From the NCBI GenBank assembly GCA_022771805.1, contig JALELM010000009.1:1-35105 (forward strand): 35,105 nt of DNA, read 5' to 3'. The first letter of the stretch is position 1; every line of letters starts with the position of its first letter. Made by a program: the position numbers and the translations under genes. The stretch comes from Veillonellaceae bacterium. GTDB taxonomy: Bacteria; Bacillota; Negativicutes; Veillonellales; Negativicoccaceae. Below are positions 15,543 through 28,109 of the stretch, piece after piece. The notes under the pieces were generated by a model. It was not told where the DNA came from. It saw only the letters and a program-made list of their open reading frames with translations, and made no database searches.

Positions 15543-16475
15543 TTAAAACGAGATCGGCATTTTTACGTAGAGCAGATCGACCACGCCGAGCGGTGCCGGT
15601 TGGACGAGAAAGAGACAGACGACTACGAGAATCGTCATGGCCAAAGCAATCGGGCTGAACTCACCGCGGGAGGTGACTTGGTAGCGCCCGAACAGACGTG
15701 TCGCGACAGTTGCCGCCAGTGCGATGATGAGACCCGCCAGGGTCAGCGTGCCGTAGTAGGCATGCATGGTCACGAACGTGAGGAAGATCACCGTCAGGGA
15801 AACCGGCATCAGCGCACGCGCCAGCGGAGTCGTAAAGGAACGCCGCAGATCAATCAGCCAGTCCGTCCAGTCCAGACCGAACAGGCCGAGCGTGGTGTAG
15901 GATGCGAGAATGACGGCATCCCAGTGAGCTGCCAAGAGATCCCGCCGTTTACCGGCTTGATAGGCAAAGGCGCAGGCGGCGAGGATGACAAGACCCGCGA
16001 GCAGGTAGTAGTAAGCCGGCGGAATGACGGCGAGCAGAACCATGCCGATGCAGGACACCAGCAGACCGCCGCCGATGTACAGCAGCCATTGGCGGCGACT
16101 CGGTCGCTCGGCAACCGGCAATTGGCGATACAGGCGCAACAGGACTTCCATCAGGAAGAAACCGACAAACGCGGCCACCGCATAGAACGGATTGGCCACG
16201 AGCATAAACGTGATGAACAGAATCGGAATCAGGATACGCCAGCCGGCGAAAATCTGCAAGTTATTAAAAGAAAGCCGCTGCTCCTGCGTATACGTGGTGA
16301 GTTGCATGAAGACGAGGAAAGTCAGCATCATGCTTAATGTTTGCAACGGAGTTGTTCCGAGCCAAAGCAAGGAACACAGCACGATGGCGGTGAGATTGGC
16401 TCCGGTGAAACGGGCAAACAGGGCTCCGAAAAAGCCGATATTCAGGTACGGCAGCATAGCGTATAAAAATTCCAT
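15543..16475 (-). CDS. Multipass membrane protein, function unknown
   Basis: The 310-residue protein is almost entirely hydrophobic, with about nine or ten membrane segments, and I do not recognise the family with confidence. The N-terminal half (GFFGALFARFTGANLTAI, then a segment ending MQLTTYTQEQ) is loosely reminiscent of TauE/SafE-type anion exporters, but the diagnostic glycine-rich motifs are missing. The start at 16475 has AAAGGAGAG six bases upstream. A longer frame to 16571 would cross the promoter. It has its own promoter, is transcribed away from the heme locus with which it shares the intergenic region, and ends at a strong terminator, so it appears to be a single-gene unit. A transporter role is only a guess. 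Confidence 0.8.
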   Translation of the reverse strand: MEFLYAMLPYLNIGFFGALFARFTGANLTAIVLCSLLWLGTTPLQTLSMMLTFLVFMQLTTYTQEQRLSFNNLQIFAGWRILIPILFITFMLVANPFYAVAAFVGFFLMEVLLRLYRQLPVAERPSRRQWLLYIGGGLLVSCIGMVLLAVIPPAYYYLLAGLVILAACAFAYQAGKRRDLLAAHWDAVILASYTTLGLFGLDWTDWLIDLRRSFTTPLARALMPVSLTVIFLTFVTMHAYYGTLTLAGLIIALAATVATRLFGRYQVTSRGEFSPIALAMTILVVVCLFLVQPAPLGVVDLLYVKMPISF

Positions 16476-16599: not shown

Positions 16600-16628
16600 T
16601 TGTCAAAAACGGTTTTTCTTGCTACAAT
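16600..16628 (+). promoter_or_regulatory. Promoter of the heme locus
   Basis: TTGTCA at 16600-16605 and TACAAT at 16623-16628 are separated by 17 bp, 33 bases before the flavodoxin ATG. The spacer contains AAAAAC-G-GTTTTT (16605-16617), a small inverted repeat that could be a repressor site. The A+T-rich stretch 16561-16592 just upstream could hold an iron-responsive operator, but I see no clean Fur box. Confidence 0.8.
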
Positions 16629-16660
16629 ACAATGTAGACATTACAGGAAGGAAGATGGCG

Positions 16661-17173
16661 ATGACACAAACAATTACGGTGGTCTATTCATCGAAAACCG
16701 GCAATACCAAGCGTGTTGCCGAGGCGATTGCGGCGGCCTGCCGGACGGAGGCGCTTGCCTTGACGGCGGATATGACCGTCGCTACGGATATGGTAGCGGT
16801 GGGTTACTGGGTAGATAAGGGGATGCCGAATGCCGAGGCATTGCATTTTTTGGAAGGTTTGAACGGGAAAAGGGTATTCCTGTTCGGTACATTGGGTGCG
16901 GATCCGGACAGCGAGCACGCGATACGGACGAAGGAAAATGCGCGCAACTTGGTTGCGGAGCGCAATGTGTTGTTGGGCGAATTTCTTTGTCAGGGCGCAA
17001 TCGATCCGAAACTGATTGAAATGTTCAAACAATTTCCGCCGGATCATCCGCATGCGATCACGCCGGAACGCTTGGAGCGGTATGCCCGTGCGGCGAAGCA
17101 TCCCGACGCAGCGGACTTGGCGGCGGCACAGGCGGCGATTCGCGCGGCGTTGGAGTTGAGCGGTGATGCGTGA
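16661..17173 (+). CDS. hmuF: Flavodoxin-like protein, probable HmuF anaerobilin reductase
   Basis: This 170-residue protein has the flavodoxin fold start TITVVYSSKTGNTKR, where TGNT (13-16) binds the FMN phosphate. The aromatic VGYWVDKGMP and the FLFGTLGADPDS segments lie near the isoalloxazine in the family. The next gene is a HutW/HmuW radical SAM protein, and this pair is the arrangement of Fusobacterium nucleatum HmuF-HmuW. There HmuF is reported to carry heme and to reduce anaerobilin, the product of oxygen-free heme opening. The start at 16661 is preferred over the ATG at 16655 because AAGGAAG is then six bases away. It overlaps hmuW by eight bases. The specific role rests on context. 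It could instead simply supply electrons. Confidence 0.85.
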   Translation: MTQTITVVYSSKTGNTKRVAEAIAAACRTEALALTADMTVATDMVAVGYWVDKGMPNAEALHFLEGLNGKRVFLFGTLGADPDSEHAIRTKENARNLVAERNVLLGEFLCQGAIDPKLIEMFKQFPPDHPHAITPERLERYARAAKHPDAADLAAAQAAIRAALELSGDA

Positions 17174-18821
17174 CGGCGGTGCGGCGGCGCGTTTGACGGC
17201 CGCTTTGAAACGTTTGTCGCCGGAAGAACGGGAATGGATTTACGGTCGGGATACCGCCGACGCGTTGCACGATGCCTTCGGCCAAAAGCGCGTGGTGCAT
17301 GCGGGGCGCGGCGGTCAGCCGCTGCTGGTTCCGGCGGAGCAGCAGGCCGTCTGGCGGGAGCGTTTGGCGGAGCCGTATGGCGGCGACGGTCGTTCCGTAT
17401 ATATTCATATTCCTTTTTGTGACCGCAAATGTCTGTATTGCGGTTTTTTCCAGAATTTCACGGAAGCGGAACTCGTTGAGGAATATACCGACGCGCTCTG
17501 CGAAGAGATTCGCGGAATTGCCGGGGCAAGACGACTGGCGGGCAGACCGGTGGAGGCCGTCTACTTCGGCGGCGGGACGCCGAGCGTGCTGTCCGGTGCG
17601 CAATTGACACGTATTCTGACAGCGCTGCGGGACAGCGTGCCGTTGGCCAATGATTGTGAAATTACGCTGGAAGGGCGTTTGCATGATTTTACGCCGGAGT
17701 ATTTTGCGACGGTAACCGAGGCGGGGATTAACCGCATTTCTCTCGGGCTGCAATCCTTCGATACCCGCGTGCGGAAATCGGTCGGTCGGATCGATGCGGA
17801 AGATGTCGTTTGCGAGCGGTTGGCGCACATGGTTCGCTCCGGCAGAGCGGCGATCATTGTAGATTTGATTTTCGGCTTGCCGTACCAGACGCCGGCGGTT
17901 TGGCAACGCGATCTGGAGTTGCAGCACGAGTTGGGGCTGCACGGCGGAGACTGGTACCAGCTGAATATTTTCCCGCATTCGGAGCTGTATCGGGCTATCG
18001 AGACAGGCAAGCTCCCCGCCGGGGCGACCACGGCCGAACAGGCGGATATGTTCATGCAGGCCTTGGACGAATTGGAGCGCCGCCCGGTTTTGCGGCGGAT
18101 CGATGTCAGCCATTGGGCGCTCGGTACGCGGGAGCGGAGTGTGTACAATACGCTCACCAAGGGCAGCCGAGATGTGATTCCTTTCGGTTGCGGCGCGGGC
18201 GGTAAGCTGTCCGGCTACGGAATGATGAATTACCGCACCTTGGCGGAATATATGGCGGCCGTGGCGCGCGGCGAAAAGCCGCTCCAGTTCATGACACGAC
18301 CGGAGCCGGAATACGATATTCTCGGCGATTTTATGCAACAGCTGGAAGGCATGTATTTGGACGGCGAGGCATTTTTACGGCGGTGGGGACATAATCCGTT
18401 GGAATTGTTCGCGCCAGTGTTTGAAGTTTGGCAACAGAAAGGTCTGGTCACCGTGGACGGTCATATCTTACGGCTGACACGAGCGGGCCAGTTTTGGCAT
18501 GACAATGTGATCCAAGCGGTCGTGGAATTGTGGCGAATGGCGCGGACGGAGCAGCCGATCCGGCCGGCGGTGGAAGATGTGGCGCGCCAGGATGAGCTGG
18601 TGCAGCGTCTTACGCCGGACGAGCGGGCGGCGGGGGTTGCCCTGCGTTTGCGCGAGATGTCGGGCATGCTCGCGGGGGCGGCCATTCCGAATCATCCGCA
18701 TGCGCTCAGATTGCAGAAAATCCTTACGAAGCTCGGCTTGGAACGCTTGCCCGAAGAGGAAGCGCAATTGCTGGAAGTGGCCAAGGAATGGTTGGCGGCG
18801 GACGAAAGGAGGCGGGGCTGA
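17166..18821 (+). CDS. hmuW: Radical SAM heme-degrading protein, HutW/ChuW/HmuW family
   Basis: ChuW and HmuW use S-adenosylmethionine and a 4Fe-4S cluster to open the porphyrin ring of heme without oxygen, releasing iron and a linear tetrapyrrole. The 551-residue protein has an N-terminal segment with KRVVHAG and VPAEQ that marks this family rather than HemW. The cluster motif is Cys85-x3-Cys89-x2-Cys92 in IPFCDRKCLYCGFFQN, and GGGTPS is near residue 138. FGCGAGG and the substrate-side H-rich region follow. It is about 100 residues longer than ChuW as I remember it, the extra part being a helical C-terminal tail (from about 430). I use the ATG at 17166. A GTG at 17163 in the same frame is possible. 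It overlaps hmuF and hmuT, so the genes are coupled. Confidence 0.92.
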   Translation: MRDGGAAARLTAALKRLSPEEREWIYGRDTADALHDAFGQKRVVHAGRGGQPLLVPAEQQAVWRERLAEPYGGDGRSVYIHIPFCDRKCLYCGFFQNFTEAELVEEYTDALCEEIRGIAGARRLAGRPVEAVYFGGGTPSVLSGAQLTRILTALRDSVPLANDCEITLEGRLHDFTPEYFATVTEAGINRISLGLQSFDTRVRKSVGRIDAEDVVCERLAHMVRSGRAAIIVDLIFGLPYQTPAVWQRDLELQHELGLHGGDWYQLNIFPHSELYRAIETGKLPAGATTAEQADMFMQALDELERRPVLRRIDVSHWALGTRERSVYNTLTKGSRDVIPFGCGAGGKLSGYGMMNYRTLAEYMAAVARGEKPLQFMTRPEPEYDILGDFMQQLEGMYLDGEAFLRRWGHNPLELFAPVFEVWQQKGLVTVDGHILRLTRAGQFWHDNVIQAVVELWRMARTEQPIRPAVEDVARQDELVQRLTPDERAAGVALRLREMSGMLAGAAIPNHPHALRLQKILTKLGLERLPEEEAQLLEVAKEWLAADERRRG

Positions 18822-19786
18822 TGGGGCGTACTTGCCGGATCTTGGGGCTTGTCGCTCTCGTTCTCGTCCTGCTGACCTGGTACTTTACCGCGGGACGGAC
18901 GCCGGCACCGTCGCCGCCGGGAACCGTAACGATTACGGACGGCCTCGGTCGCGAAGTCAGCATCCGCACGCCGACGGAGAAAATTATTTCCCTGACGAAT
19001 GCGGATACGGAAACATTGCTGGCACTGGGAGTGACACCGTATGCGGTCGTTTCCAATTTCAATATGTCGCCGGAGATTGCTCAACGATTGGCGGGCGTGC
19101 CGGAGGCAGGAGCCGTGACGGCGCCGAATCTGGAGAAAATCGTGGCGCTGAAGCCGGATCTCGTCGCCGGCGGTTTGATGCCCTTTCAGACACAATTGGC
19201 ATCGCCGCTGACACAGGCCGGCATTCCGGCGGTCTTTCTGCTGGCCAATTCCTACCGGGATATTCTGGAGCGGATCACGTTCTGGGGGAATGTGACGGGA
19301 CGTAACCGGGAAGCGACGGAGCTTGTCAGAACCATTGAGCGGGATGTGGCGGCGGTACGCGAGAAATATGCCCATCGCGAGCGCAAACGAATACTGATTG
19401 TCTGGGGCACGGCAACGAGCTTCCAGCTGGCTTCTTCGCATACTTTCGTCGGCGATTTGGTGGCACAGGTTCCCGTGGAGAACTTGGCGGACAGTTTTGC
19501 CGGCAGCATGGAGAAAAAAGGCCTCGGCACGGGTTTTGTCGCATTGGATCCGGAATACCTGGCCAAGGCGGATCCGGATGTGGTTCTGGTAGTAACGCAC
19601 GGAGTTTCGCAGGAAAAAGCGAAAACTTTCCTGGCGGCATTTCAGAAACAATCCGTCTGGCAGAAATTGCGGGCGGTGCGCGAAGGGCATGTCCATATTC
19701 TACCGCAGGAAATGTTTGCATCCAATCCGAATGTACGGGTAGCACAGTCGGTCGCCTATGTCGGGCAGGTGCTGTATGAACAATGA
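18821..19786 (+). CDS. hmuT: Heme ABC transporter substrate-binding protein
   Basis: HmuT-type proteins carry heme from the outer-membrane receptor to the ABC permease. In the 321-residue protein a hydrophobic segment (about 7-24) ends without a lipobox cysteine, so it is either a signal-anchor or an ordinary signal peptide. Next come the family start TITDGLGREVSIRTP, a region with NLEKIVALKPDLV, and a C-terminal half with GHVHILP. This is the two-lobed cluster A-II/PF01497 fold used for heme, siderophores and B12. The ATG at 18821 follows AAAGGAGG and overlaps the hmuW stop by one base. The heme call comes from its neighbours. The fold alone would allow other metal chelates. Confidence 0.9.
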   Translation: MGRTCRILGLVALVLVLLTWYFTAGRTPAPSPPGTVTITDGLGREVSIRTPTEKIISLTNADTETLLALGVTPYAVVSNFNMSPEIAQRLAGVPEAGAVTAPNLEKIVALKPDLVAGGLMPFQTQLASPLTQAGIPAVFLLANSYRDILERITFWGNVTGRNREATELVRTIERDVAAVREKYAHRERKRILIVWGTATSFQLASSHTFVGDLVAQVPVENLADSFAGSMEKKGLGTGFVALDPEYLAKADPDVVLVVTHGVSQEKAKTFLAAFQKQSVWQKLRAVREGHVHILPQEMFASNPNVRVAQSVAYVGQVLYEQ

Positions 19787-20768
19787 AGCGGTGAAACACA
19801 GTCCGCGGGACTGGCTCTTCGGCGTGATGTTCGTACTGCTGCTTGCGGGTCTGATTTACGGGATGAGCAGCGGTGCGTACCGGCTCGGCTGGCAGGATAT
19901 GTGGGCGGCGTTGCAGACGGGGCCGACGCACGAATGGTACACCGTGCTCTATGATATCCGTTTGCCGCGCCTGCTTGTGGGCGCTTTGGCGGGTGTCAAT
20001 CTCGCGTTGGCCGGTTGCATTTTGCAGGGGGTGCTGCGCAATCCGCTGGCGGATCCCGGCCTGCTCGGTGTCAGCGCCGGCGCGGGGCTGGCGGCGATGG
20101 TCATTATGATTATTCTGCCGCAGCATATGGCGTGGATTCCGCCGGCCGCTTTCATCGGGGCTCTGATCGCGACGGCACTGGTGTACCTGCTTGCCTGGCG
20201 GCAGGGAGTCAGTCCCCTGCGCCTGGTATTGGCGGGCGTGGCGCTGGCTGCTTTCTTTGGCGGCTTGATGACCTTGCTGACTTTTTTCTACTCCGATCGG
20301 GTGCAGGGAACGGTCGGCTGGATGGCGGGCGGTTTTACCGGCCGCGGCTGGGATTATGTCCTGCTCATTTTGCCGTATACGCTGTTGGGGCTCATCGGTT
20401 CGGTGTTTGCAACGAAGGCGCTTACCATTTTGAGTTTCGGTGACGATATTGCCGCCTCGCTCGGCCTGCCGGTCGAGCGGACACGGCTGTTGCTCCTGAC
20501 TCTGGCGGCATTGCTGGCGGCCTCGGCGGTCAGCGTGGCGGGGATGCTCGGCTTCGTCGGGCTCATTGTGCCGCATATCGCGCGGCTTCTGATCGGCGGC
20601 GATTTTCAGCGCTTTGTGCCGTTGGCGGCACTCAGCGGCGCAGTTTTGATCCTTTTTGCCGATACCGTTGCTCGGACGGCGTTCAGCCCGATCGAAGTGC
20701 CGGTCGGCGTGCTCATGAGCTTCGTCGGGGCACCGTTCTTCCTGTATTTGTTGCGGAAGGCGGTGTGA
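19776..20768 (+). CDS. hmuU: Heme ABC transporter permease
   Basis: A BtuC/FecCD/HmuU-family permease of 330 residues with about ten membrane segments. Family landmarks are DIRLPRLLVGALAG near residue 52 and NPLADPGLLGVSAGAGL at about 88-104, plus GFVGLIVPHIARLL near 260. The last is next to the coupling helix that touches the ATPase. The start at 19776 overlaps the end of hmuT by 11 bases, so translation is coupled. The ribosome binding site is weak. It would form the inner-membrane channel with HmuV and receive heme from HmuT. Confidence 0.93.
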   Translation: MNNEAVKHSPRDWLFGVMFVLLLAGLIYGMSSGAYRLGWQDMWAALQTGPTHEWYTVLYDIRLPRLLVGALAGVNLALAGCILQGVLRNPLADPGLLGVSAGAGLAAMVIMIILPQHMAWIPPAAFIGALIATALVYLLAWRQGVSPLRLVLAGVALAAFFGGLMTLLTFFYSDRVQGTVGWMAGGFTGRGWDYVLLILPYTLLGLIGSVFATKALTILSFGDDIAASLGLPVERTRLLLLTLAALLAASAVSVAGMLGFVGLIVPHIARLLIGGDFQRFVPLAALSGAVLILFADTVARTAFSPIEVPVGVLMSFVGAPFFLYLLRKAV

Positions 20769-20769
20769 G

Positions 20770-21567
20770 ATGGCGACATTGGCAGTGCATCATCTTTGCA
20801 TGGGTTACGGCAAACATATCGTGTTGCCGGATGTCAGCCTGAGCTTTGAGAAACCGGAGATCGTCTCGATCGTCGGCGCCAACGGCTCGGGTAAATCGAC
20901 ATTGTTACGGGCGTTGGCGCGGCTGCAGGCACCGCGAGCCGGTGCAGTACTGTTGGACGACCGGCCGATCGGTGCGTACACCCGGCGGGAAGTGGCACGG
21001 AAGATTTCGGTATTACCGCAGTCGGCCGCCGCACCGCCCGATATGTTGGCGGAACGGCTTGTCGCCTGCGGCCGGCATCCGCACCGGGGCTATTTTGCGG
21101 AATACGGGGCGGAGGATCGCCGGATCATTGAAAACGTCATGCGGGAAACGGATACGTGGCAATACCGCGATCGCTTCCTGCAGGAACTTTCCGGCGGGGA
21201 GCGGCAGCGCGTCTGGCTGGCGATGGCGTTGGCACAGGAGCCGGAAATATTGCTGCTGGACGAGCCGACGACCTATTTGGATATTCGTCATCAATTGCGT
21301 TTGATGGAATTGGTACGCGAGGCGTATCAACGCAAACGGATGACTGTCATCATGGTGCTGCACGATTTGAATCAGGCAATCGCGTACAGTCACCGCATTA
21401 TCGCTTTGCGTCAGGGGACGATCGTCGGCGACGGGACACCGTCGGCGGTACTGACGGCGGAGCACATCGCCGACTGGTTCGGCGTGCGTGTGCAATGTGT
21501 GGACATCGAGACGACGGACGGGAAACAGCAGTTTCACCTGCCGCTCGGCATTGCGGACGAAGAATAG
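20770..21567 (+). CDS. hmuV: Heme ABC transporter ATP-binding protein
   Basis: HmuV is the ATPase subunit that powers heme import. The 265-residue protein has Walker A GANGSGKST at 36-44, the signature LSGGERQR at 140-147, Walker B ILLLDEPTTYLD at 160-171 and an H-loop histidine in MVLHDLNQA. The extra C-terminal part (AEHIADWFGVRV) is common in the iron-chelate importer subfamily. The ATG at 20770 lies one base after the hmuU stop. The gene is followed by a hairpin with a T-run before the first TonB receptor. Confidence 0.95.
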   Translation: MATLAVHHLCMGYGKHIVLPDVSLSFEKPEIVSIVGANGSGKSTLLRALARLQAPRAGAVLLDDRPIGAYTRREVARKISVLPQSAAAPPDMLAERLVACGRHPHRGYFAEYGAEDRRIIENVMRETDTWQYRDRFLQELSGGERQRVWLAMALAQEPEILLLDEPTTYLDIRHQLRLMELVREAYQRKRMTVIMVLHDLNQAIAYSHRIIALRQGTIVGDGTPSAVLTAEHIADWFGVRVQCVDIETTDGKQQFHLPLGIADEE

Positions 21568-21574
21568 GTTCATT

Positions 21575-21608
21575 AAGGGTGGTATGCTTTCAGCATGCTG
21601 CCCTTTTT
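21575..21608 (+). terminator. Hairpin terminator between hmuV and TonB receptor 1
   Basis: A 13-bp stem (three G-T pairs) joins 21575-21587 and 21593-21605, followed by TTTT into 21608. It is internal to the locus: no clear promoter lies between it and the receptor start at 21649. So it may be a partial terminator that makes receptor expression lower than, or separately tuned from, the import genes. Confidence 0.65.
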
Positions 21609-21648
21609 GTGTTTTTATGCACGGGAGTGTAGGAAAGGAAGGGAAATA

Positions 21649-23673
21649 ATGAGCAGAAAACTTTGGTTAGCGGCTGTTGTGGCCGCTGTCCTCGGTAGCA
21701 CGGCGCAGGCGGCCGATTACAGCCTGGCGGAGGTCGTCGTGACGGCCGCGCGGGTGCCGCAAACACTGCGAGAGACTCCGACCACGGTCGAGGTCGTCAA
21801 TCAGGAGACGCTTGTCGCACAAGGCGCGACGAATCTAGCGGAAGCATTGGAAACGGTGCCCGGCATTACTTTCCACAATGACGGCATGCGGCGCTCGCAT
21901 GTTACCATCCGCGGGACGGATTCCCGCCATACGCTGATCCTGGTCGACGGCAAGCGAGTCGGGACGGATGTGGGCAAAACGCTTTACAATCCGAATATCC
22001 TCCAGGATATCGGCATGGAGAATATTGAACGCGTTGAAATCGTCAAAGGCGGTGCCTCCGCGCTCTACGGCTCGGAAGCCATCGGCGGCGTTATCAATGT
22101 CATCACGAAAGCACCGGACAAGGCTGTCCTGACCTTGCACGGCCAGACGGGGAATTACCAAGGCGGCGAGCACAACGAATACCGCTACCATATGAGCTAT
22201 GATACCGGCAAAACGGGGAACTGGCGTATCCGTGTCGCGCATGGCGCACGTAAGCAGGTCCCGCAGTACAACAAGGCCGGCGGCACGGACTACTACTACG
22301 GCCTGGCGCGCCCGACGAGTGTGAGCATCGGTTATTCCTTCGACGAACGACATGAGCTGGTTGCCGACTATGAACGGCAGGTTTCACAGCAATACGGCGA
22401 CAAATATGTTATGGGAGCCGACGTCAGCAACCGCGTCGTAACGAATAACGGCGGGCTGACTTTCCGCGGTACGGACGGCGGCTGGGAATATACGGCGCAG
22501 GTGTATCGCAATCAGTATGTGAAAGACTATGCCCAAACAACCGCCGGTCGCATCGGGAGTTTGGATTATACGAAACATACGGAAACCGTGTTCGATTTGC
22601 TCGGGACACGGACGCTGAATGCCGCGCATCGACTGACGCTCGGCGGGGAGTATCGCAAGGAAAACGGTATTTCCACGCGGATGAAATCCGGTCGCGACGA
22701 AGGCTTGTACGGCACCTATAAGAAACACGTTATGCAGCCGATTTTCGATGCTGATCACAACATCATCGGGATGAAGCCGGTGATGGAAGAAATCACGCTG
22801 CCGAACGGGCAAGTGATTAAGCAGCCGAAGATGAAAACGGTTGAAGTCCGGAAATACGGGGCGGATCTGTCCTATTGGAGCGTGTATGCGCAGGACGAAT
22901 GGCGGCCGAACGAGAAGTGGCTGCTCGTGCCGGCAATTCGCTATGACCACAGCAATGAATTCGGCGGCCGCATTCTCCCGAAATTCGGTGCGACGTACTT
23001 CAACGCCGAGACAAGTCGCTGGAAATTCAATATCGGCACGGGCTTTGTCACGCCGGGCTTGATGGAACGCTACTACGATTTCGATATGGCCGGCATCGTG
23101 CATTGGGTGGGAAATCCCGACTTGAAACCGGAAAAATCCGTCAGCTACGAGTTGGCTTGGGAAAAAGAATTTGCTTCTCATCGGACAAAACTGGCGTATT
23201 TCTACAATGACATCCGGGATTATTGGAATGCGGTTCCGGCCAAGCCGGGCAATCCTGCATCGCGAGATCAGATGTATGTCAACGAATACCGGGTTATCTC
23301 GCAGGGCTTGGAATGGACGGGCAGTGTCGAGCTGAATGAGCATTGGGGTTTGAATTACGGTTACACGTACCTGCATGTGAAGAATAAAGACACGAACCGC
23401 GCCATCACGGAGCAGCCGAAGCATAAAATAGACTTGGGGCTGCGCTACAGTAACGGCGCTTGGAGCGTAAACATCTGGGGAAATCGGTACGGCGGTTACC
23501 TCACGACGGACGGCCTGAAAAAGAGCACGACCATGCTGAACATGACGGTTGCTCACCGTTGGGAGAACGGGTTGCGAGTCTTCCTCGGCGTGGACAATAT
23601 TCTGAAGCGGGATACATTGGTTCGTACGTACAACGGGCGTTTCTACAAAATCGGTTTCGATTGGCGAATGTAA
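21649..23673 (+). CDS. TonB-dependent outer-membrane receptor, probable heme receptor 1
   Basis: A 674-residue 22-strand receptor. The signal peptide (hydrophobic core 7-16, cut after AQA at 19-21) precedes a TonB-box-like EVVVTAAR. A plug domain follows, with ALETVPG, IRGTDSRHTLILVDG(K) as two motifs and GASALYGSEAIGG. The barrel contains NPDLKPE, similar to the NPNL box of heme and hemoglobin receptors. A variant of the FRAP box (FVTPGLMERYY) precedes it. It ends in a barrel strand. The ATG at 21649 follows GGAAAGGAAGGG. The position after hmuTUV makes heme or hemoglobin the likely ligand, but sequence does not fix this. No tonB, exbB or exbD is present in the window. Confidence 0.92.
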   Translation: MSRKLWLAAVVAAVLGSTAQAADYSLAEVVVTAARVPQTLRETPTTVEVVNQETLVAQGATNLAEALETVPGITFHNDGMRRSHVTIRGTDSRHTLILVDGKRVGTDVGKTLYNPNILQDIGMENIERVEIVKGGASALYGSEAIGGVINVITKAPDKAVLTLHGQTGNYQGGEHNEYRYHMSYDTGKTGNWRIRVAHGARKQVPQYNKAGGTDYYYGLARPTSVSIGYSFDERHELVADYERQVSQQYGDKYVMGADVSNRVVTNNGGLTFRGTDGGWEYTAQVYRNQYVKDYAQTTAGRIGSLDYTKHTETVFDLLGTRTLNAAHRLTLGGEYRKENGISTRMKSGRDEGLYGTYKKHVMQPIFDADHNIIGMKPVMEEITLPNGQVIKQPKMKTVEVRKYGADLSYWSVYAQDEWRPNEKWLLVPAIRYDHSNEFGGRILPKFGATYFNAETSRWKFNIGTGFVTPGLMERYYDFDMAGIVHWVGNPDLKPEKSVSYELAWEKEFASHRTKLAYFYNDIRDYWNAVPAKPGNPASRDQMYVNEYRVISQGLEWTGSVELNEHWGLNYGYTYLHVKNKDTNRAITEQPKHKIDLGLRYSNGAWSVNIWGNRYGGYLTTDGLKKSTTMLNMTVAHRWENGLRVFLGVDNILKRDTLVRTYNGRFYKIGFDWRM

Positions 23674-23691
23674 GCAAGGTCAAGCAAGGTT
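23674..23691 (+). repeat. Short tandem repeat after TonB receptor 1
   Basis: AAGCAAGGT occurs twice in tandem, separated by one base, directly after the stop codon. It is probably a small slippage duplication and has no clear role. Confidence 0.6.
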
Positions 23692-23696
23692 AAATA

Positions 23697-23730
23697 AGAA
23701 AACGGTTTCCTGTACAGGAAACCGTTTTCT
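23697..23730 (+). terminator. Perfect palindromic terminator after TonB receptor 1
   Basis: The 34 bases are a perfect 17+17 palindrome centred between 23713 and 23714. The outer AGAAAAC and GTTTTCT arms supply A- and T-tracts on both sides, so it could terminate in either direction. It separates the two receptor genes. Confidence 0.85.
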
Positions 23731-23770
23731 GATGCACCGGATATATGTTCATCTGTGCAAGTATTCAAAT

Positions 23771-23826
23771 ATTATTATAAAAATAATGATGCATAAGTAG
23801 TTTTTGGTTAAACGCAATGCTATAAT
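23771..23826 (+). promoter_or_regulatory. Promoter region of TonB receptor 2 with A+T-rich inverted repeat
   Basis: TATAAT at 23821-23826 is a perfect -10, 30 bases before the ATG. The -35 region is poor (TAGTTT at 17 bp), which would fit an activated or regulated promoter. Upstream, ATTATT at 23771-23776 and AATAAT at 23782-23787 form an inverted repeat with a 5-base spacer, loosely like a Fur box. This is a weak match. Confidence 0.55.
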
Positions 23827-23856
23827 AAATACTCGAAAGTGAAATGGAGGTTTACT

Positions 23857-25881
23857 ATGAAACAATATCTCGAGCGCCGGCTGACGGCGCTGACATTTGC
23901 TCTTGCGGTGCCGGCGGGGACGGTCTTGGCGGCATCTGCGGACTATCATCTCGGTCCGGTTGTCGTGACGGCGACGCGGACGGAAGAACGAGTGCAGGAT
24001 GCGCCGGCGGCGGTGCAGGTAGTCACGCGGCACGAAATGACGGATCGCGGTGCGAGCACGCTGGGTGAAGCATTGGCGGCAATCCCCGGTGTGCAGCTGT
24101 CGATTGATGCGAAGTCGCGTTCGCATGTGAACTTGCGCGGGATGGAGAATCGCCACACGCTGATTTTAGTGGACGGGCAGCGTATCGGCGGCGACATCAA
24201 CCAGGGTGCAGGTAATGCCCATGTGTTGGAGCGCATCGGCATACAGGATGTGGAACGGATCGAGGTCGTGCAGGGAGCGTCCTCGGCGCTGTACGGTTCG
24301 GATGCGGTCGGCGGGGTGATCAATATCATCACGCGCCGCAGTCAGGAGCCGTCGCTTTCCTTGCGCGGGAGCTACGGCTCGTTCAGTGACGGCGCCCGCG
24401 GGCAGTACGACTACGGCTTGCGTTACGACAGCGGCAGCGACCGGGCATTGCGGTATCGTATTTCATACGGGGCGCTGCATCAGGCGCCGCACTCAAACGG
24501 TCGGGGCGGCTCGCTTTACTATTACGGCACGGCACGGCCGCTGGCCATCAGTGCGGAGTACATGCTGAGCGAGCAGGCGAGAGTCGGCGCGATGTATCGC
24601 CGAACCGTTCATCAGCAGTATGTGGACGGCGGTTACAAGGAGACCAAGCCGGGAGCGCCGAAGCAATTCCGCGACGATACGGACAATCGCACGGTGACGA
24701 CGACGGCGGGAGCGTATTATGAAGGGAATAGCGGTGAGGCGAGATACCGTTTGGATTTGCAATATACCCGTTACACGAAAGATTACGCGACCTTTTCGCG
24801 GGCGAGGGAAATCACGGGTGTAGACTATACGCGACACACGACGGCGGGAGCGGCGTTCCGCTACGATTGGCAGCCGCTCGGTTCGCACCGTCCGCTGCTC
24901 GGTGCGGAGTATCGCACGGAAGAGGGAGTCTCGACGCGGATCGGTACCTCGGATCCGGCCGGTATGTATCAGCGCGGCGATTATCCCGCACAGCCTTTGC
25001 ATCGCTTGCGAATCAAGTATCGCAGCGCATATTTGCAGGATACTTGGGAGCCGTCCTCGCGTTGGCGTATCATCCCGGCACTGCGCTTGGACTCCAGCGA
25101 TGCGTTCGGCTCGCAGTGGTCGCCGAAACTCGGTGCGATTTATCGGCTGCGGGATGATCTGCGTTTCAAAGCGAATGTCGGGCGCGGCTATGTCACACCG
25201 CGCATTACGGAACTGGCGTATCGGTTCATGATGTTTCAGGAAGTGTTCATGGGGCCGCGTGTCGGCTATGTGGACAGCTGGTGGATCGGCAATCCGGATC
25301 TCCGCCCGGAAACATCCGTTTCCTATGACATAAGCGTAGAAAAAGACTTTGCGGCAGGGCAGATCCGCGCCACCTTGTTCCGCCAGCAATTGCATGATTA
25401 CATTCACTATCGCCGCATCAAGGTGGAAAAGCTGGGACAGATTCAAGGCTTTCCGCATCAGCTTTGGACCTATCGGTACGAAAACGGCGGCGAGGCTACG
25501 GTGCAGGGAGCGGAACTCGCGGGAGAGTGGCGCATCGGTACGCATTGGGAGATGCGTTTCGGCTACAATTACCTGGACGCGCGCAACGGTGCGGGGGAAC
25601 GCCTGTACGATCGCGCCCGGCATAAAGTCGATCTCGGCGCCTACTACCACGGCGGCAACTGGTCGGCTGCGCTGTGGGGCAGCCGTCAATGGAGCTACCT
25701 GTCCTCTTTTGCGGAGGAAGCGCGACCGGAAGCTTTCGGCATCTGGAATGCCAATATCGGCTACACCTGGAATAACGGTCTGCGACTGTACACCACGGTG
25801 GAAAATCTGTTCAATGCAAACCGAACGGAACGAACGTTTGTCGGGCGCGGCTGGCGTATCGGCATGGAATATACATGGTAA
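23857..25881 (+). CDS. TonB-dependent outer-membrane receptor, probable heme receptor 2
   Basis: A second receptor, also 674 residues. It has a signal peptide (cut near VLA-AS at 23-27), a TonB-box-like VVVTATRTEE, a plug with ALAAIPGVQ, RGMENRHTLILVDGQRIG (two adjoining motifs) and GASSALYGSDAVGG, and a barrel. It also has NPDLRPE preceded by a YVTPRITELAYRF segment, the positions of the NPNL and FRAP boxes. The closest relative I can see is the receptor just upstream, though the two clearly differ in the plug loops and barrel, so they may take different ligands. GGAGG lies seven bases before the ATG at 23857. It has its own promoter and terminator, so it is not strictly in the hmu operon. 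Confidence 0.92.
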   Translation: MKQYLERRLTALTFALAVPAGTVLAASADYHLGPVVVTATRTEERVQDAPAAVQVVTRHEMTDRGASTLGEALAAIPGVQLSIDAKSRSHVNLRGMENRHTLILVDGQRIGGDINQGAGNAHVLERIGIQDVERIEVVQGASSALYGSDAVGGVINIITRRSQEPSLSLRGSYGSFSDGARGQYDYGLRYDSGSDRALRYRISYGALHQAPHSNGRGGSLYYYGTARPLAISAEYMLSEQARVGAMYRRTVHQQYVDGGYKETKPGAPKQFRDDTDNRTVTTTAGAYYEGNSGEARYRLDLQYTRYTKDYATFSRAREITGVDYTRHTTAGAAFRYDWQPLGSHRPLLGAEYRTEEGVSTRIGTSDPAGMYQRGDYPAQPLHRLRIKYRSAYLQDTWEPSSRWRIIPALRLDSSDAFGSQWSPKLGAIYRLRDDLRFKANVGRGYVTPRITELAYRFMMFQEVFMGPRVGYVDSWWIGNPDLRPETSVSYDISVEKDFAAGQIRATLFRQQLHDYIHYRRIKVEKLGQIQGFPHQLWTYRYENGGEATVQGAELAGEWRIGTHWEMRFGYNYLDARNGAGERLYDRARHKVDLGAYYHGGNWSAALWGSRQWSYLSSFAEEARPEAFGIWNANIGYTWNNGLRLYTTVENLFNANRTERTFVGRGWRIGMEYTW

Positions 25882-25908
25882 AAGAGGAGATGTCTCCTCT
25901 TTTTTTAT
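25881..25908 (+). terminator. Terminator after TonB receptor 2
   Basis: AAAGAGGAGA at 25881-25890 pairs with TCTCCTCTTT at 25893-25902 across a very small loop, and the T-run continues to 25906. It begins at the last base of the stop codon. Confidence 0.88.
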
Positions 25909-25930: not shown

Positions 25931-25968
25931 AATAAATACAGATGATATAGTACATGAGGGGTGATGTC

Positions 25969-27453
25969 TTGGGAGGATTACTGCATACCTTGCGGGAAGT
26001 CGGGCAGGCGGTATTGCCGATCGGTGCCTTGATTTTTTTCCTGAGTTGGACGTTGGCGCCGCTTCCGGCTGATATGCTGGTGCGTTGTGCGTTGGGAACC
26101 TTGCTGATTGTCCTCGGCCTGGCGATTTTCCATGTCGGGGTGGATATCGGTGTCCGCCGGATCGGGGCGCATCTCGGTCGCTCCATGACGAAGTACGGCA
26201 AGATGGCGATCGTCATTGCAAGCGGGCTGGTGCTCGGCTTTGCCATTTCGATGGCGGAGCCGGATCTGCGGATTTACGGGCAGCAGGTGGAAACGCTGAC
26301 CGGCGGCTACATGACGGAAATGATGCTGGTGTACGCGGTCTCGGCGGGGATTGCCGTGTTCCTGGCGATCGGTCTTTGGCGGATCGTGCGGACACTGGCC
26401 TTGAAATATATATTCCTGATTTTTTACGGTATTGTCGGGCTGTGCTGTTTTTTCGTACCGACGGAATTTATCGCATTATCGTTCGATGCATCGGGAACGA
26501 CGACGGGAGCCATGACGGTGCCTTTCTTTCTGGCGCTGGCCGCCGGGGTTTCCGAATTCAAAGCGGCAGACACGGTCGCTTCGGAGGAGGACAGTTTCGG
26601 TCTGGTTGGCATCGCTTCGGCGGGAGCGATAGTCGGAGTGTTGCTGATGGCGATCGCCAGCAGCCAGCAGGCCTTTGCCGCGACGGTCGTTATTCCGGAG
26701 CAGCCGGAACTGCTGCCTTTGTGGGAGAGCTTCGTGACCTTGGTGCCGCATATGGCATGGGAAGTGTTGCTGAGCGTGCTGCCGGTCGTGGTGTTGTTCT
26801 ATCTGGCGCATTTTTTTGTCGAACGGGTTTCGGCGGCGGAGTTGCGACGGATTCGCTTCGGTCTGATTTACACGTATATCGGGTTGGTCATTTTTATGAC
26901 GGGTGTGAATTTCGGTTTCAACCGGGCAGGATATGAGCTCGGGTTGCAAATCGCGGCGGGACATTCGGGCTGGTGGTTATGCCTGGTCGGTCTGGTCATC
27001 GGTTTGGTCGTGATTTTGGCGGAGCCGGCGGTAACTCCGCTGGTGCACCAAATCGAAGACATCACGAGCGGCTACGTGCCGAAGCGATTGGTACTGATTT
27101 CGCTCTCGCTGGCGGTCGGCGGTGCCGTGGGCTTGTCGATGCTGCGGATCGTCGTGCCGGGGTTGGAGCTTTGGCATCTGTTGTTGCCGGGTTACCTGTT
27201 GGCGACGGGGCTGGCCTTCATCGTCCCGAATTTGTTCGTCGGCATGGCCTTTGATTCCGGCGGAGTCGCCTCGGGACCGATGGCGGCAACTTTCGTTCTG
27301 AGTTTTGCCAGCGGTGCGGCACGCAATTATCCGGGCGCGGATGTGTTCCTGGACGGCTTCGGTGTGGTCGCACTGGTAGCTATGTTGCCCATCGTGGCAC
27401 TGCAGATTTTAGGTCTGCTGTTTCGTATAAAAGCGGGGAGGAAGCAAGCGTGA
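25969..27453 (+). CDS. DUF1538 tandem-domain membrane protein
   Basis: The 494-residue protein has about 12 membrane segments. It is built as an internal duplication: the first half has a hydrophobic run, AEPDLRIYGQQVETLTGGY and FDASGTTTGAMTVPFFL, and the second repeats these as AEPAVTPLVHQIEDITSGY and FDSGGVASGPMAATFVL. That double pattern is the DUF1538 fold. Paired DUF1538 proteins (UmpA/UmpB in Halomonas) are, as I recall, reported as a Na+/H+ antiporter, so a cation transporter is plausible but unproven here. The TTG at 25969 is preferred: AGGGGTG lies just before it, and the ATG at 25954 has no ribosome binding site. It overlaps the next gene by four bases (GTGA). A PII-like partner implies allosteric control. 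Confidence 0.85.
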   Translation: MGGLLHTLREVGQAVLPIGALIFFLSWTLAPLPADMLVRCALGTLLIVLGLAIFHVGVDIGVRRIGAHLGRSMTKYGKMAIVIASGLVLGFAISMAEPDLRIYGQQVETLTGGYMTEMMLVYAVSAGIAVFLAIGLWRIVRTLALKYIFLIFYGIVGLCCFFVPTEFIALSFDASGTTTGAMTVPFFLALAAGVSEFKAADTVASEEDSFGLVGIASAGAIVGVLLMAIASSQQAFAATVVIPEQPELLPLWESFVTLVPHMAWEVLLSVLPVVVLFYLAHFFVERVSAAELRRIRFGLIYTYIGLVIFMTGVNFGFNRAGYELGLQIAAGHSGWWLCLVGLVIGLVVILAEPAVTPLVHQIEDITSGYVPKRLVLISLSLAVGGAVGLSMLRIVVPGLELWHLLLPGYLLATGLAFIVPNLFVGMAFDSGGVASGPMAATFVLSFASGAARNYPGADVFLDGFGVVALVAMLPIVALQILGLLFRIKAGRKQA

Positions 27454-28109
27454 CGACACATAACTATACGGTCGTGTACTTTGTCGTCAATCACGACCTC
27501 AGCGCCGATCTCAGTGCGGCGTTGCACCGGGAGCATATCCGCGGTGCATCGGTCATGCCCGCTTGGGGCTCGGTACAGAATTCGGTTTTGGCGTTTTTCT
27601 GTCTGGACCAAGTACGCAAAGACATCGTTTTCTTCGTCGAGGAGACGAATCTGGCATTGCGGCTGCTGCGGGAGATGGCAGCGCGATTCAAATTGACGAA
27701 ACGCAACCGGGGGATTGCCTTTGCGCTGCCCGTCAGCGGTATTTACGGCGTGCGGGATATCCCGAATCGGCAAGTGGCACAACAGGAGGCGAAAGAAACT
27801 ATGTGGCAGGCAATTTATACGATCGTCAATCAGGGCGATGCGGACGGGGTCGTGGCTGCGGCGACCGAAGCGGGGGCACGCGGCGGTACGATTCTGCGCG
27901 GACGCGGCTCGGCACAGCATACGGGGGTGCGGTTGTTCGATTTTCCGATCGAGCCGGAAAAAGAAGTCGTGCTCGTTCTTGCGCCGAAGGACAAGACGAG
28001 TGAAATTGTTGCAAATATTCATACCAAGATGAAAATCGACGAGCCGGGACGCGGGATTATTTTCGTGATGGATGTTACGGAAGCGTACGGACTTGTCGGG
28101 CAGGATTGA
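27450..28109 (+). CDS. PII-like protein with two GlnB-type domains
   Basis: The 219-residue cytosolic protein seems to hold two tandem PII-like (GlnB/GlnK fold) domains: 1-112 and 117-219. The second has GGTILRGRGSA (145-155) before the T-loop region and ends with GRGIIFVMDV, both typical. The first is more degenerate, with FALPVSGIYG in the matching place. Neither has a clear uridylylation tyrosine in a normal T-loop. The GTG at 27450 overlaps the DUF1538 stop by four bases, so the two proteins are made together, as GlnK is with AmtB. The likely job is to bind a nucleotide or metabolite and gate the transporter. Ligand and target are inferred, not shown. Confidence 0.85.
   Translation: MTTHNYTVVYFVVNHDLSADLSAALHREHIRGASVMPAWGSVQNSVLAFFCLDQVRKDIVFFVEETNLALRLLREMAARFKLTKRNRGIAFALPVSGIYGVRDIPNRQVAQQEAKETMWQAIYTIVNQGDADGVVAAATEAGARGGTILRGRGSAQHTGVRLFDFPIEPEKEVVLVLAPKDKTSEIVANIHTKMKIDEPGRGIIFVMDVTEAYGLVGQD

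What the first reader, a model, noticed from the sequence alone, without database searches (positions are those of the whole stretch)
16600..25881. Complete anaerobic heme uptake and degradation locus in a diderm Firmicute
HmuF-like flavodoxin, HutW/ChuW/HmuW radical SAM protein, hmuTUV importer and two TonB receptors form a full route from outer membrane to heme opening without oxygen. Characterised examples are in E. coli O157, Vibrio and Fusobacterium. In a Negativicute the locus would link heme scavenging to gut or oral anaerobes and to how such cells cope with or use heme.
Basis: partly seen in the sequence, partly recalled or inferred. Interest (0 to 1): 0.65.

Follow-up and report, generated by a model that had tools for sequence, protein, structure and literature searches.

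The report
Anaerobic heme uptake and breakdown operon
A small-genome anaerobic Negativicute (a relative of Veillonella) carries a complete gene set to import heme and cut it open without oxygen to free its iron; this is real, but the same kind of cluster is already published in Veillonella and Fusobacterium and is common in this bacterial class, so it is a good example of a known system and no surprise.

Summary
Confirmed and ordinary in kind. Window 16655-21567 holds a tightly packed run hmuF-hmuW-hmuT-hmuU-hmuV, followed by two TonB-dependent receptor genes (21649-23673, 23857-25881) set off by terminator-like hairpins. HmuW passes the curated ChuW/HutW cut-off (472 against 400 bits) and groups with E. 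coli ChuW and Vibrio HutW, not with HemW or HemZ (support 99/98; joining it to HemW rejected, p about 2e-6). HmuF is a true relative of Fusobacterium FldH/HmuF: the iron ligand His134 and most FMN contacts are kept, and its predicted model matches heme-bound FldH (8G64) far better than ordinary flavodoxins (Z 21 against 16). The receptors and importer are heme proteins by context only; heme-specific cut-offs are not met. TonB and ExbD lie elsewhere in the genome. No ferrochelatase or cytochrome bd was found, which favours heme as an iron source. HutW is over cut-off in 88 of 200 Negativicutes, with an HmuF relative within 7 kb of 90 of 95 copies; Veillonella clusters were published in 2023. 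The one odd feature is a long, fast-evolving C-terminal tail on Negativicute HmuW, His-rich in some genera.

The parts
16600..16628 (+). sigma-70-like promoter candidate for hmuF (TTGTCA-17-TACAAT with TG before the second hexamer)
   Evidence: consensus scan only
16655..17173 (+). hmuF: heme-binding flavodoxin-superfamily protein (HmuF/FldH type), 172 aa
   Evidence: PF12641 3.5e-52; phmmer to FldH 8g64 2.4e-20; iron ligand His134 and most FMN contacts kept; model pLDDT 88, best PDB match 8g64 Z 21.1 over 163 residues
17163..18821 (+). hmuW: radical SAM anaerobilin synthase (ChuW/HutW family), 552 aa, with an extra C-terminal tail of about 95-100 aa
   Evidence: TIGR04107 472 bits, cut-off 400; CX3CX2C-GFFQN and SHW...RERSVYN; HutW clade 99/98
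18821..19786 (+). hmuT: periplasmic binding protein of class III (heme/siderophore/B12 type); start overlaps hmuW stop
   Evidence: PF01497 5.8e-36; best models IsdE 144 bits (cut-off 298.65, not met) and PDB 5joq, 2q8p IsdE-type
19776..20768 (+). hmuU: FecCD-type permease
   Evidence: PF01032 2.4e-97
20770..21567 (+). hmuV: ABC ATPase of the FecE/HmuV group
   Evidence: PF00005 1.8e-32; FecE 256 bits, heme ATPase PRK13548 233 bits against a cut-off of 261
21575..21605 (+). terminator-like hairpin after hmuV
   Evidence: 14 pairs followed by a T-rich tail
21649..23673 (+). TonB-dependent receptor 1, 674 aa, candidate heme receptor
   Evidence: PF07715 and PF00593; TIGR01785 hemin receptor 176 bits against a cut-off of 316.85; PDB CirA then heme receptor PhuR; 64% identical to the receptor in the same place in G001
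23698..23729 (.). perfect inverted repeat GAAAACGGTTTCCTGTACAGGAAACCGTTTTC between the two receptor genes (terminator candidate)
   Evidence: read directly from the sequence
23857..25881 (+). TonB-dependent receptor 2, 674 aa, ligand unknown (heme or related by context)
   Evidence: PF07715 and PF00593; 38% identical to receptor 1; the sister genus G001 has a second hmuT-like gene here instead
25880..25903 (+). terminator-like hairpin that closes the locus
   Evidence: 10 pairs followed by a T-rich tail

Best explanation
An iron-from-heme locus of an anaerobic diderm. Steps: (1) one or both TonB-dependent receptors bring heme, or a heme-bearing ligand, across the outer membrane, powered by the TonB and ExbD coded elsewhere in the genome [inferred]. 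(2) HmuT binds it in the periplasm and HmuUV carries it into the cytoplasm [inferred from families and context]. (3) HmuF binds heme through the His134 equivalent and hands it to HmuW [inferred; demonstrated for the Fusobacterium proteins in PMC10404700]. (4) HmuW, an oxygen-sensitive radical SAM methyltransferase, adds a SAM-derived carbon to a heme meso position, which opens the ring and frees Fe2+ and anaerobilin [inferred from family membership, which was tested here]. (5) Reduced HmuF reduces the reactive anaerobilin [inferred, as shown in Fusobacterium]. Since no ferrochelatase and no cytochrome bd were found in this genome or its family, the most likely benefit is iron and protection from free heme, not supply of heme as cofactor.
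For: HmuW over the curated HutW cut-off and below the HemW cut-off. Tree: HutW clade 99/98, HmuW joined to HemW rejected with p 1.97e-6. Radical SAM cysteines and HutW-type motifs kept. HmuF matches only FldH 8g64 among solved structures by sequence, keeps His134, His89, His150, Pro151, Asp155 and the phosphate-loop residues, and its model matches 8g64 at Z 21.1 over 163 residues against 16.3 over 122 for ordinary flavodoxins. Overlapping or abutting genes hmuF-W-T-U-V. Synteny in G001. HmuF relative within 7 kb of 90 of 95 HutW genes in Negativicutes. TonB and ExbD in the genome. No ferrochelatase and no cytochrome bd.
Against: No activity data for these proteins. Heme-specific cut-offs of the importer and receptor models are not met. 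No convincing Fur box was found upstream. The genome is 95% complete, so absences in it rest partly on the 99%-complete relatives. Absence of PF00762 does not exclude the siroheme-dependent heme route.
Confidence: 0.88

Rival explanations
1. The locus serves mainly heme detoxification or porphyrin disposal rather than iron feeding: HmuF buffers heme and HmuW destroys the excess.
For: HmuF in Fusobacterium is described as protecting against labile heme and anaerobilin (PMC10404700); no heme biosynthesis end step and no cytochrome bd, so heme has little evident cofactor use here.
Against: The enzyme genes are joined to an importer and lie next to two outer-membrane receptors, which is odd for pure detoxification. 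The two roles are compatible.
Confidence: 0.2
2. The importer and receptors carry another substrate (cobalamin, a siderophore or another tetrapyrrole), and only hmuF and hmuW act on heme.
For: Heme cut-offs are not met for HmuT, HmuV and both receptors; best solved relatives of the receptors are CirA-like; in Selenomonas the hmuF-hmuW pair stands without this importer.
Against: HmuT's best relatives are IsdE-type heme binders. The same transporter set is linked to HmuW-HmuF in several other genera of the order (L065, L068, L070, L072, L080) and in published hmu clusters.
Confidence: 0.1
3. HmuW is not an anaerobilin synthase but a HemW-type heme chaperone or a coproporphyrinogen oxidase.
For: Same radical SAM fold family; hits to HemW, HemN and HemZ models, all below their cut-offs.
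Against: HutW cut-off met, HemW, HemN and HemZ cut-offs not met; tree and AU test; the genome has separate HemW-like and HemZ-like genes at C9 and C16.
Confidence: 0.02

Closest known systems
Fusobacterium nucleatum hmuTRUVWF locus (HmuW anaerobilin synthase, HmuF anaerobilin reductase; PMC10404700)
   Same: Same enzyme pair, importer and receptor type; HmuF keeps the heme ligand and FMN site of FldH.
   Different: Gene order (hmuF first, hmuF-W-T-U-V then receptors), two receptors, HmuW with a long C-terminal tail.
Veillonella dispar and V. atypica heme clusters (PMC10404700 Fig. 1)
   Same: Same class, with HmuW and HmuF in one heme cluster; this is the published precedent in Negativicutes.
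   Different: The Veillonella-like family f4 in the searches also has ferrochelatase and cytochrome bd, which the window's family lacks; that f4 is the Veillonella family is inferred.
E. coli ChuW/ChuY/ChuS and Vibrio HutWXZ
   Same: HmuW is in the same enzyme family.
   Different: Those systems use ChuS/ChuX or HutX as heme carriers and, in E. coli, ChuY as reductase (PMC10404700); here HmuF would take both jobs.
BilS flavodoxin family (NF045594)
   Same: Same Flavodoxin_3 superfamily; 116 bits.
   Different: Below the BilS cut-off of 155; genomic context is heme uptake.

Membership tests
ChuW/HutW/HmuW anaerobilin synthase (TIGR04107) | score over the curated equivalog cut-off (400 bits) | tested here: met
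   472 bits, positions 2-417 of 419
ChuW/HutW/HmuW anaerobilin synthase (TIGR04107) | CX3CX2C radical SAM cluster motif | tested here: met
   CDRKCLYC at residues 86-93, with the HutW-type GFFQN after it
ChuW/HutW/HmuW anaerobilin synthase (TIGR04107) | falls in the ChuW/HutW clade, not with HemW or HemN | tested here: met
   clade 99/98; HmuW with HemW rejected, p 1.97e-6
ChuW/HutW/HmuW anaerobilin synthase (TIGR04107) | opens heme to anaerobilin and Fe2+ without oxygen | not testable with these tools
   needs anoxic enzyme assay
HmuF/FldH heme-binding flavodoxins | flavodoxin fold with helical cap like FldH | tested here: met
   model pLDDT 88; 8g64 best match, Z 21.1 over 163 of 172 residues, ordinary flavodoxins 16.3 over 122
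HmuF/FldH heme-binding flavodoxins | heme ligand His134 and FMN-site residues | tested here: met
   His134, His89, His150, Pro151, Asp155, Ser9, Asn13, Thr14, Lys56 kept; Ala57 and Ala82 are Gly and Lys92 is Arg
HmuF/FldH heme-binding flavodoxins | contiguous with hmuW | tested here: met
   hmuF overlaps the hmuW start by 11 bases
HmuF/FldH heme-binding flavodoxins | heme trafficking and anaerobilin reduction | not testable with these tools
   needs purified protein
BilS flavodoxin (NF045594) | score over cut-off 155 | tested here: not met
   116 bits
HmuTUV / class III iron-complex ABC importer | Peripla_BP_2, FecCD and ABC ATPase genes together | tested here: met
   PF01497, PF01032, PF00005 over cut-offs
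HmuTUV / class III iron-complex ABC importer | heme-specific subfamily (IsdE TIGR03659, PRK13548) | tested here: inconclusive
   best-ranked or near-best models are heme types, but 144 of 298.65 and 233 of 261 bits
TonB-dependent heme/hemoglobin receptor (TIGR01785) | score over cut-off 316.85 | tested here: not met
   176 and 166 bits; filed only as TonB-dependent receptors with ligand inferred from context
HemW heme chaperone (TIGR00539) | score over cut-off 205.4 and HemW clade | tested here: not met
   168.5 bits; outside the clade

The most novel reading that the evidence does not exclude
Negativicute HmuW carries an extra C-terminal tail, about 75-155 residues in most cases, that binds heme, the released iron or HmuF, coupling delivery, ring opening and iron capture in one protein. 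The tail has an HPH motif shared by the window, its sister genus and Selenomonas, and GHPxGVP-type His-rich repeats in two other genera.
Probability: 0.12. Interest if true: 0.4.

Novelty: new member of a known kind. Interest (0 to 1): 0.2.

Why it matters
It confirms that oxygen-independent heme breakdown is a general trait of many Negativicutes, including a family with very small genomes that lacks ferrochelatase and cytochrome bd, where imported heme would be of use mainly as iron. It gives a compact, well-conserved operon in which HmuF and HmuW can be studied together, and it points to a lineage-specific tail on the enzyme. It does not change what is known about the chemistry.

Tried and rejected
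HemW, HemZ and coproporphyrinogen oxidase identity for HmuW: rejected. BilS identity for the flavodoxin: below cut-off. Fur box search upstream of hmuF, receptor 1 and receptor 2 with the TGATAAT-N-ATTATCA consensus: best 9-10 of 14, no better than elsewhere in the window; no regulator site claimed. Structure of the HmuW tail: AlphaFold model from nine sequences was poor (mean pLDDT 49, tail under 50), so nothing is drawn from it. An apparent match of the HmuW tail to the start of Vibrio tritonius HutX runs through the hutW stop codon and was set aside as a by-product of the search. Similarity of the tail's NHPHA to the DHPHA around the heme ligand of HmuF: the Selenomonas HmuF proteins do not have it, so taken as chance. 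The order is taken to be the Veillonellales from genome sizes, base composition and the Selenomonas/Centipeda hits (inference).

Full report
What is there. The stretch 16600-25881 holds seven genes on the + strand. Refined coordinates are hmuF 16655-17173, hmuW 17163-18821, hmuT 18821-19786, hmuU 19776-20768, hmuV 20770-21567, receptor 1 21649-23673 and receptor 2 23857-25881. The first five overlap or abut, so they are most likely one operon. Terminator-like hairpins follow hmuV (21575-21605) and receptor 2 (25880-25903), and a perfect inverted repeat lies between the receptors (23698-23729); the receptors may therefore be expressed at their own levels (inference). Upstream lie serS, tig, clpP, clpX, lon, engB and biotin genes; downstream a fused UmpAB-like antiporter (DUF1538), a PII-like protein and ribosomal genes.

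HmuW. The 552-residue protein scores 472 bits against the curated ChuW/HutW model (cut-off 400), while the HemW, HemN and HemZ models stay under their cut-offs. It has CX3CX2C followed by GFFQN, and SHW...RERSVYN, as in E. coli ChuW and Vibrio HutW. In a maximum-likelihood tree with E. coli, Rahnella, Vibrio and Cereibacter HutW and with HemW, HemZ and a coproporphyrinogen-oxidase-like protein as outgroups, all HutW-type proteins form one side of a branch with support 99/98, and a tree that joins the window protein to HemW is rejected (p 1.97e-6). The outgroup branches are long, as the tree program warned, but family scores and motifs agree with the tree. The genome has its own HemW-like gene (C9) and HemZ-like gene (C16), so the roles are separate.

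HmuF. The 172-residue protein has a Flavodoxin_3 domain. Its only match by sequence among solved structures is heme-bound FldH of Fusobacterium nucleatum, 8G64. The residues reported for FldH (PMC10404700) are mostly kept: the iron ligand His134, His89, the phosphate loop Ser9, Asn13, Thr14, and Ala147, His150, Pro151, Asp155. The hydrophobic residues around the heme are only partly kept (Leu121 and Phe125 yes; Leu130, Ile133, Val137, Met140 changed). A structure model of good confidence (pLDDT 88) matches 8G64 at Z 21.1 over 163 residues, against 16.3 over 122 for ordinary flavodoxins, so the cap as well as the core is matched.

Importer and receptors. HmuT, HmuU and HmuV are a class III importer of the iron-complex type. 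HmuT's best relatives are IsdE-type heme binders, but curated heme cut-offs are not met. The two receptors are full-length TonB-dependent receptors; hemin-receptor models score 176 and 166 bits against a cut-off of 317, and the closest solved structures are CirA, then PhuR for receptor 1. They are 38% identical to each other, and receptor 1 is 64% identical to the receptor at the same place in the sister genus. In that sister genus a second hmuT-like gene stands where receptor 2 is here. Their ligand is therefore inferred from context. The energy-transfer proteins ExbD and TonB lie together on another contig (C6:68336-69955), and the genome has 16 receptor plug matches.

Genome background. Ferrochelatase (PF00762) and cytochrome bd (PF01654) are absent from this genome and from the three other genomes of its family, and present in exactly the same 28 of 61 genomes of the order, all in one family. 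HutW over the cut-off occurs in 39 of the 61 genomes, 25 with and 14 without ferrochelatase, so heme breakdown is not tied to heme synthesis. In the window's family the simplest reading is that heme is taken for its iron. The siroheme-dependent heme route was not tested.

How common it is. HutW over the cut-off was found in 88 of 200 Negativicutes sampled, and in a sample of 398 genomes across the phylum only in 8, all of the window's class. An HmuF relative lies within 7 kb of 90 of 95 of the class's HutW genes. Clusters with hmuW and hmuF in Veillonella dispar and V. atypica are shown in Figure 1 of PMC10404700. The finding is therefore a new member of a published kind.

The one unusual feature. 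Gammaproteobacterial HutW proteins end 16-21 residues after the conserved FW-x-x-N/T-x-x-Q motif, whereas most Negativicute HmuW proteins continue for 75-155 residues (two for only 30-36). The tails begin with a conserved V/I-A-x-Q-D/N motif and then diverge. The window, its sister genus and Selenomonas share an (N/D/S)HPH motif, and two genera of the Veillonella-like family have His-rich GHPxGVP-type repeats (a 93-base tandem repeat in one). A structure prediction failed. A role in heme or iron handling is a guess that could be tested by deleting the tail.

Verdict. It is a well-preserved example of a known system, of interest for Negativicute biology but not surprising.

Noticed in passing
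L077:9496-10926 and L078 (genomes G002, G003, same family as the window): A strongly divergent HutW-like protein (337 bits, under the 400 cut-off; FPKRH in place of FFQN after the cysteines) sits in a receptor-PBP-rSAM-HmuF cluster; long branch inside the HutW side of the tree. Could have a changed reaction or substrate.
   Followed up: partly
L074:10663-11100, L065, L072; window 18530-18821: Negativicute HmuW has long C-terminal tails absent from gammaproteobacterial HutW; in two genera these are His-rich GHPxGVP-type repeats.
   Followed up: partly
G000:C16:29383-30764: A HemZ-like radical SAM gene lies next to the only Fur-family gene found in the genome.
   Followed up: no
order-wide search: Ferrochelatase and cytochrome bd are present in exactly the same 28 of 61 genomes, all one family, suggesting heme is made there mainly for cytochrome bd.
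   Followed up: partly
whole genome G000: 16 TonB-dependent receptor plug matches in a 1.44 Mb genome, a high number for its size.
   Followed up: no
window 25954-28109: Fused UmpA/UmpB-like DUF1538 antiporter followed by a PII-like gene directly after the heme locus, kept in the same place in the sister genus.
   Followed up: partly
window 15543-16469, minus strand: Membrane protein of 308 aa without any Pfam or NCBIfam match, divergent from hmuF, kept beside the locus in the sister genus and at a distance in L067 and L080.
   Followed up: partly
G015:C1:1985478-1986805 (L079): hmuW split over several reading frames next to an hmuF-like gene: a likely pseudogene in that genome.
   Followed up: no
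literature: PMC12077173: The E. faecalis protein RS05575, described as an anaerobilin synthase, is only 23% identical to ChuW and flanked by hrcA, the usual neighbour of hemW (as in L087); it may belong to the HemW clade rather than to HutW.
   Followed up: no
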